From Micromonospora sp. M71_S20 (lineage in GTDB: Bacteria; Actinomycetota; Actinomycetes; Mycobacteriales; Micromonosporaceae), in the NCBI RefSeq assembly GCF_003664255.1, contig NZ_RCCV01000001.1, positions 1,240,001-1,304,000 of the forward strand: DNA of 64,000 bases, given 5' to 3'. Below the pieces are notes generated by a model, which searched no databases, had not been told where the DNA came from, and saw only the letters and a program-made list of their open reading frames with translations. A program made the position numbers and the translations under genes. Shown piece after piece: positions 18,423 through 18,776 of this stretch (the first letter of the stretch is position 1; every line of letters starts with the position of its first letter).

Positions 18423-18776
18423 TCAGCGGGCGGCGGCGGCCGACCGCGCGGCGACCGCGGCGCCGTGCTGGGCGATCGCGGCGGCCGCGGCGAAGCCGAA
18501 CGCTCCCCCGGCGACGGCCGGCAGGATGGTCACGCTGTCGCCGTCGTTGAGCTTGGCGTCCAGCGCGCCGAGGAAGCGGACGTCCTCGTCGTTGACGTAG
18601 ACGTTGACGAAGCGGTGCAGCGCGCCGGCGTCGGTGACCAGCCGGGCCTTCAGGCCGGCGTGCCGGGAGTCCAGGTCGGCGAGCAGGTCGGCGAGCGTGT
18701 CGCCGGCGCCCTCGACGACCTTCGCGCCGCCGGTGTAGCTGCGCAGGATGGTGGGGATGCGAACCTCGATGGCCAT
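18423..18776 (-). CDS. cysO: Sulfur carrier protein CysO (ThiS/MoaD family) with C-terminal extension
   Basis: A 117-residue beta-grasp protein. Residues 1-91 track mycobacterial CysO closely ([47 protein letters not shown]). In M. tuberculosis the protein ends at this diglycine, whose last glycine becomes the thiocarboxylate that carries sulfur. Here the frame runs on after Gly90-Gly91 for 26 more residues, Ala-rich and ending in RSAAAAR. Free C-terminal glycine is needed for activation, so the tail must be removed first, perhaps by the Mec protease encoded directly upstream. The ATG has GAGGAG nine bases upstream. Confidence 0.92.

What the first reader, a model, noticed from the sequence alone, without database searches (positions are those of the whole stretch)
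18423..18776. CysO carries 26 extra residues after the catalytic diglycine
Mycobacterial CysO ends at the diglycine that becomes a thiocarboxylate. Here residues 90-91 are that diglycine (AVAGG), followed by an Ala-rich 26-residue tail ending RSAAAAR. ThiS/MoaD-like carriers with extra C-terminal residues need a protease to expose the glycine. The JAMM protease Mec is encoded next to it and known to cut after the CysO diglycine, so a pro-CysO maturation step is a testable idea that would add a control point to cysteine synthesis.
Basis: partly seen in the sequence, partly recalled or inferred. Interest (0 to 1): 0.7.

Follow-up and report, generated by a model that had tools for sequence, protein, structure and literature searches.

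The report
CysO made with a removable tail
In this soil bacterium and most of its sampled family, the small protein that carries sulfur for making cysteine is encoded with extra residues beyond its working end; part of this tail is conserved and probably has to be cut off, likely by the protease encoded next door.

Summary
In detail: the genome's single CysO match (117 aa, minus strand) has 26 residues after Gly90-Gly91. It is not a frameshift. All 49 readable same-genus loci are extended, and 88 of 114 loci of the family carry a conserved start, A-[F/L]-G-[F/L]-A-A-A-A-A-[I/L]. Its ten codons are under purifying selection (pN/pS 0.16; core 0.23); the following residues are nearly free (0.74). 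ThiS and MoaD end exactly at Gly-Gly in 30 of 30 test genomes each, so the tail is a CysO trait. The genome has one JAMM-type gene, Mec, beside cysO, and one MoeZ. Outside the family, 99 of 147 loci are also capped, 60 of them by only 1-2 residues. Since Gly-Gly is kept in 261 of 262 loci, the tail most likely must be removed, most simply by Mec. That is inferred; no cleavage was shown. The principle is not new: capped carriers with a clustered JAMM gene were reported in Streptomyces (GG-MV) in 2018. What appears new is the long conserved hydrophobic cap across a family and how common capping is. A new variant of a known kind; a control-point role is untested.

The parts
18423..18776 (-). cysO, full-length ORF (117 aa), capped CysO
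   Evidence: fold match
18504..18776 (-). CysO core, residues 1-91 (ubiquitin-like ThiS/MoaD fold)
   Evidence: Pfam ThiS 5-91; model matches 3dwg, 4n6e, 3dwm
18504..18509 (-). Gly90-Gly91, the diglycine whose last residue would become the thiocarboxylate
   Evidence: present in 221 of 222 CysO loci and in 40 of 40 read later
18474..18503 (-). conserved cap, residues 92-101 ([10 protein letters not shown])
   Evidence: pN/pS 0.156; motif in 88 of 114 family loci
18426..18473 (-). variable part of the tail, residues 102-117
   Evidence: pN/pS 0.744 for residues 102-110, compared ungapped so inflated by indels
18850..19338 (-). mec, JAMM/Prok-JAB metalloprotease; probable GTG start at 19338 (start judged by eye)
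   Evidence: PF14464 E 3e-31; E...HSH-x7-S-x2-D in the sequence; only PF14464 match in the genome up to E 1
17443..18408 (-). CysM-type cysteine synthase, 14 nt downstream of cysO
   Evidence: PF00291 and best NCBIfam hit TIGR01136, 343.6 bits, just under its 344.15 cut-off
19392..19886 (-). DUF2017 protein, weak match to the AosR model (69 bits, cut-off 260)
19889..20179 (-). clpS (start judged by eye)
   Evidence: PF02617 E 9e-23

Best explanation
CysO is translated here as a precursor. Its C-terminal extension blocks the diglycine, so MoeZ cannot adenylate and thiocarboxylate it and CysM cannot use it. A protease, most likely the neighbouring JAMM enzyme Mec, cuts between Gly91 and Ala92 and exposes Gly91. 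Mature CysO then enters the known cycle: MoeZ makes CysO-COSH, CysM joins it to O-phosphoserine to give CysO-Cys, and Mec releases cysteine by cutting after the same glycine. Shown here: the tail, its conservation, its absence from ThiS and MoaD, and the single JAMM and MoeZ genes. Inferred: the cleavage, Mec as the protease, and the inactivity of uncut CysO. The conserved hydrophobic decapeptide is best read as the protease's primed-side recognition segment or a latch; the variable remainder as filler.
For: Extension in 49 of 49 readable same-genus loci, and of >=10 residues in 45 of 65 loci of other family genera. Cap under purifying selection while residues 102-110 are relaxed (1000 of 1000 bootstraps). 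GG kept in 221 of 222 loci and 40 of 40 more whatever follows it, which would be odd if it stayed covered. The residue just after GG is A, S, G, C or M in 32 of 34 family-residue pairs against 0.476 expected from tail composition, while the next position gives 15 of 40; with 40 more loci it is 39 of 42. ThiS and MoaD end at GG in 30 of 30 genomes each. One Prok-JAB gene and one full ThiF-rhodanese gene in the genome. Mec found for all 261 loci: 257 in the fetched stretch and 4 elsewhere in the genome. Precedent: deleting the JAMM gene ptmS1 abolished thioacid production, which the authors take to use capped carriers.
Against: No cleavage was observed. Mec also accompanies uncapped CysO, so co-occurrence cannot separate maturation from cysteine release. 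No Mec feature was found to track the cap: the one candidate, a C-terminal Mec segment, also occurs in other families and is missing in the capped g39 genus. 26 of 114 family loci lack the motif, and by the tree it was lost or degraded several times with the operon kept. In the precedent, deleting capped carrier ptmS2 alone did not stop production; the authors suggest redundancy. The residue set in the P1' test was chosen after seeing the data and families are not independent.
Confidence: 0.68

Rival explanations
1. CysO is trimmed to Gly91, but by another protease (Clp, another endopeptidase, or carboxypeptidases); Mec only releases cysteine from CysO-Cys.
For: MoaX of mycobacteria is cut at GG|S by a protease described as unidentified (PMC4326299). 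clpS lies two genes upstream. Cap sequences vary widely among lineages.
Against: Mec is the only Prok-JAB gene of the genome and lies next to cysO. The P1' bias argues against random exopeptidase trimming. A JAMM enzyme cuts such a junction elsewhere: DRJAMM on MoaD-MoaE.
Confidence: 0.17
2. The tail is a neutral leftover of stop-codon loss, tolerated because something trims it; it has no function of its own.
For: Residues after 101 evolve almost freely, and 30-bp repeats are seen there. One congener keeps only AFGFVAAR (L134). Other families have unrelated caps.
Against: Residues 92-101 have pN/pS 0.156 and the motif recurs in 26 of 42 family genera sampled. The first residue is Ala in 46 genus entries, which a single base change in a stop codon cannot give.
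Confidence: 0.12
3. The tail stays on and gives CysO another role (ubiquitin-like tag, binding module, regulator) instead of sulfur transfer.
For: The model shows a helix over 92-115, but at low-to-middling confidence, block means 57-67.
Against: Residues 81-90, which include ILPAVAG, are strongly constrained (pN/pS 0.06). cysM lies in the fetched stretch of all 261 loci. It is the only CysO match in the genome.
Confidence: 0.03

Closest known systems
Capped sulfur carriers PtmS2 (GG-MV) and PtmS3 (GG-C) and the JAMM protease gene ptmS1, Streptomyces platensis (PMC6006322; section 7 and search passages seen)
   Same: Carrier with residues after GG, JAMM gene clustered with ptmS2, a sulfurating activator (PtmS4). 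PtmS2 residues 1-90 end at GG, the same length as many Streptomyces CysO loci read here with two-residue caps such as MV, so PtmS2 is probably Streptomyces CysO (inferred; its sequence was not compared).
   Different: In the window's genus the extension is 8-50 residues with a conserved hydrophobic start.
Mec-CysO-CysM cysteine pathway of Mycobacterium tuberculosis (PMC3227635, passages seen; solved CysO 3dwg, 3dwm)
   Same: Protein families, and MoeZ with rhodanese domain. Gene neighbourhood as in mycobacteria is recalled, not tested.
   Different: The mycobacterial CysO chain ends at the diglycine. Mec is described there as freeing cysteine from CysO-Cys, not as a maturation protease.
QbsE/QbsD (thioquinolobactin) and HcyS/HcyD (Wolinella): carriers with short caps cut by JAMM-type proteases (QbsD is named in PMC6006322 section 7; QbsE, HcyS/HcyD and cap lengths are recalled)
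   Same: Small ThiS-like carrier, short cap after GG, dedicated protease.
MoaX / MoaD-MoaE fusions cut after the MoaD diglycine (PMC4326299, PMC8832034; abstract and passages seen)
   Same: Carrier must be freed at Gly-Gly. The cut falls before Ser in MoaX; DRJAMM does it in Deinococcus.
   Different: The removed part is a whole enzyme subunit, not a cap peptide.

Membership tests
CysO (Mec-CysO-CysM pathway) | ThiS/MoaD ubiquitin-like fold, closest to solved CysO | tested here: met
   phmmer 4n6e_B E 3.8e-33, 3dwg_C E 4.2e-29; Foldseek top hits 3dwg, 4n6e, 3dwm
CysO (Mec-CysO-CysM pathway) | operon with a JAMM protease and a CysM-type synthase | tested here: met
   same strand, short gaps; co-transcription itself not tested
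CysO (Mec-CysO-CysM pathway) | MoeZ-type activator with rhodanese domain in the genome | tested here: met
   one ThiF match over the cut-off, with rhodanese domain
CysO (Mec-CysO-CysM pathway) | protein as encoded ends at the diglycine | tested here: not met
   26 further residues; the feature describes the solved CysO chains and is not general, since 99 of 147 loci outside the family are capped as well
CysO (Mec-CysO-CysM pathway) | forms a C-terminal thiocarboxylate used by CysM | not testable with these tools
   needs mass spectrometry and enzyme assay
Capped sulfur carrier processed by a JAMM protease | residues after GG | tested here: met
Capped sulfur carrier processed by a JAMM protease | JAMM protease gene adjacent, catalytic motif intact | tested here: met
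   window Mec has DEACG and HSH-x7-S-x2-D. Of 218 Mec proteins checked, 216 match DExxG plus HxH-x7-S-x2-D; the other two (L095, L114) show EEACG and NEACG with the HSH motif, seen by eye. The Mec genes were not checked for the motif
Capped sulfur carrier processed by a JAMM protease | protease removes the cap | not testable with these tools
   no cleavage assay

The most novel reading that the evidence does not exclude
The conserved decapeptide is a dedicated propeptide that makes CysO a zymogen-like sulfur carrier in Micromonosporaceae. Mec both matures CysO and frees its cysteine, so precursor and CysO-Cys compete for one protease and cysteine output is gated by Mec supply. More widely, a capped precursor is the usual state of CysO in Actinomycetes and the uncapped mycobacterial form the exception.
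Probability: 0.3. Interest if true: 0.72.

Novelty: new variant of a known kind. Interest (0 to 1): 0.52.

Why it matters
CysO is best known from a mycobacterial protein that ends at its diglycine. Most actinomycete CysO loci read here do not, and one family has kept a specific hydrophobic cap. If Mec removes it, one JAMM enzyme would serve both as maturation protease and as product-release hydrolase in a sulfur pathway, a bacterial parallel to pro-ubiquitin processing. It also matters practically: if the reading is right, CysO cloned as encoded from these genera would be inactive without its protease.

Tried and rejected
Co-adaptation of Mec with the cap: a C-terminal Mec segment (QSYMFGQSP...) first looked cap-linked, but it occurs in some other families and is absent in the capped g39 genus. 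Rejected.

Frameshift or read error: rejected by 49 of 49 readable same-genus loci and the codon pattern. One locus, L140 (G054, a draft of about 530 contigs), lacks the GG in its frame; dropped from the tallies and left as read.

General drift of C-termini in a GC-rich genome: rejected by ThiS and MoaD, 30 of 30 each ending at GG.

Tail needed as the ribosome site of cysM: unlikely, since uncapped family loci L075, L077 and L088 keep short gaps of 5-8 nt.

Nascent-chain arrest at the stop: unlikely, because among the 88 motif-bearing loci the stop lies from inside the motif region (L134) to 40 codons after residue 101.

Structure of the tail: helix 92-115 at low confidence, from an alignment holding the window protein and 53 of the 78 distinct CysO proteins; Ala-rich stretches are readily predicted helical, so nothing was built on it. 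One search aligned the window protein with wrongly placed letters of L002 and was not used.

A first tally of 107 loci outside the family (69 capped) was chosen for diversity and from the better-ranked matches; on re-checking I read 40 more, 16 of them from families already seen, 4 from the unread family f8, and 20 lower in the class ranking: 30 of 40 are capped, but family f8 only 1 of 4. The sample stays incomplete: 107 of the 239 class-sample genomes with a match were read.

The tree took in extra outgroup families by a prefix slip; this only added outgroups. The 40 later loci are not in it, nor in the selection test.

Full report
What is there. The ORF at 18423-18776 on the minus strand is a 117-residue CysO. 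Pfam ThiS covers residues 5-91 and the nearest solved chains are Amycolatopsis CysO (4n6e_B) and mycobacterial CysO (3dwg_C), whose chains end at the residue aligned with Gly91. After Gly90-Gly91 come 26 residues, [26 protein letters not shown], then TGA. cysO lies between mec (18850-19338) and a cysM-type gene (17443-18408), all on the minus strand; a DUF2017 gene with a weak AosR match and clpS lie upstream.

The tail is inherited. Among named records the best matches are mostly Micromonospora. Of 50 same-genus loci read, 49 keep the GG and all 49 are extended, 48 of them by at least ten residues; the fiftieth (L140) was dropped. In the other genera of the family, 45 of 65 loci have at least ten extra residues, 7 have 3-9, 6 have 1-2 and 7 none. 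The first ten residues follow A-[F/L]-[G/A]-[F/L]-A-A-A-A-A-[I/L/M/V], with small departures, in 88 of 114 family loci and in 26 of 42 genera; none of the 147 loci read outside the family fits the motif pattern. On a FastTree of concatenated Mec, CysO core and CysM, the motif fits one gain near the base of the main family clade and several later losses; this is a reading by eye, with some weak nodes and midpoint rooting.

Selection. Across 56 distinct same-genus sequences, pN/pS is 0.231 (0.213-0.249) for the core, 0.156 (0.047-0.279) for residues 92-101 and 0.744 (0.637-0.862) for residues 102-110; the last exceeds the cap in 1000 of 1000 bootstraps (a first run with 57 sequences, agrees). 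The Ala98 site alone uses four Ala codons. Residues 102-110 were compared without gaps, so indels inflate their value. The free part can grow by repeats: L254 carries 3.2 perfect copies of a 30-bp unit, and 7 of 49 same-genus tails have two or three AAAAA[I/V/L/M]xxH units.

The tail belongs to CysO. In the window's genome ThiS ends AAQGG and MoaD ends PFAGG. In 30 genomes (29 of the family, one of another family), ThiS ends at GG in 30 of 30 and MoaD in 30 of 30. CysO was read in 28 of those 30 (not in G002 and G134) and is extended in all 28. The genome has one Prok-JAB gene, Mec, and one ThiF gene over the family cut-off, which carries a rhodanese domain as MoeZ does.

Capping is common in Actinomycetes. 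Outside the family 99 of 147 loci, in 25 of 36 families, have residues after the GG: 60 have one or two (such as M-x, S-R, A-R, C), 15 have 3-9 and 24 have ten or more (which adds 40 loci to the 107, where 69 were capped). In the class sample, 107 of the 239 genomes with a match were read and 76 are capped. Family f8 has 1 of 4 capped. The residue just after GG is A, S, G, C or M in 32 of 34 family-residue pairs, against 0.476 expected from downstream tail composition; at the next position it is 15 of 40. With the added loci it is 39 of 42, the exceptions being R, T and D. The residue set was chosen after looking and families share ancestry, so the p-value of the first test (8e-9) is only a guide. 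Some lineages duplicate the end of the gene: L195, L221 and the named locus L274 carry a second PAVAGG at the very C-terminus, and L151 and L167 carry one inside the tail.

Mec. All 261 tallied loci with a GG have Mec: 257 in the fetched stretch (218 of 221; 39 of 40) and four (L157, L171, L175, L426) elsewhere in the genome. In the class sample of 296 genomes, 239 have a CysO match and 232 a Mec match. By my comparison of the two lists, eight have a CysO match without Mec, all weak matches (E 4e-25 or worse); their C-termini were not read. This association does not separate maturation from cysteine release, since uncapped CysO also has Mec.

Explanation. The diglycine is kept in 221 of 222 loci and 40 of 40 more although most have residues after it, and a cysM-type gene lies in the fetched stretch of all 261. 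The simplest reading is that the tail is removed and that the removal site is constrained on both sides. Mec is the best candidate because it is already described as cutting after the CysO glycine, in CysO-Cys (PMC3227635, passages). In Streptomyces, capped carriers PtmS2 and PtmS3 and the JAMM gene ptmS1 were studied: ptmS1 and ptmS4 deletions lost thioacid production, a ptmS2 deletion did not, which the authors put down to redundancy (PMC6006322, section 7). JAMM cutting of MoaD-MoaE is in print for Deinococcus (PMC8832034, passages), and MoaX is cut at GG|S by a protease called unidentified in PMC4326299 (abstract and passages). No cleavage was tested here.

What is new. The principle of a capped carrier is known. 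I found no report of the long conserved cap or of how widespread capping is; my paper searches were over an open-access library that lacks most subscription journals, so this is a weak negative. Whether the cap regulates cysteine synthesis is open.

Noticed in passing
L195, L221, L274 (also L151, L167): The 3' end of cysO is duplicated so that a second PAVAGG follows the first; in L195, L221 and L274 it forms the exact C-terminus, which could give a free diglycine without a protease.
   Followed up: partly
L101, L119, L164 (also L392): Tails built of short units that end in Gly-Gly (e.g. ATEGEVAGG units in L164).
   Followed up: no
L254:2285-2380; similar repeated units in other Micromonospora tails: A perfect 30-bp tandem repeat inside cysO lengthens the tail by ten residues per copy.
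   Followed up: partly
window 18850-18930 (C-terminus of Mec): Mec of this family and a few others carries an extra C-terminal segment (QSYMFGQSPATVDYEC...), absent in most other families read and in genus g39; function unknown.
   Followed up: partly
L097, L099 (second CysO-like copies): Some congeners have a second CysO-like protein with no Mec or CysM match within the fetched stretch (about 1.5 kb each side); L098 ends at GG, L097 and L099 at GG-AG.
   Followed up: no
L140 (G054): CysO frame lacks the diglycine and runs on to 203 residues, overlapping cysM; a draft-genome artefact or a broken gene, not resolved.
   Followed up: no
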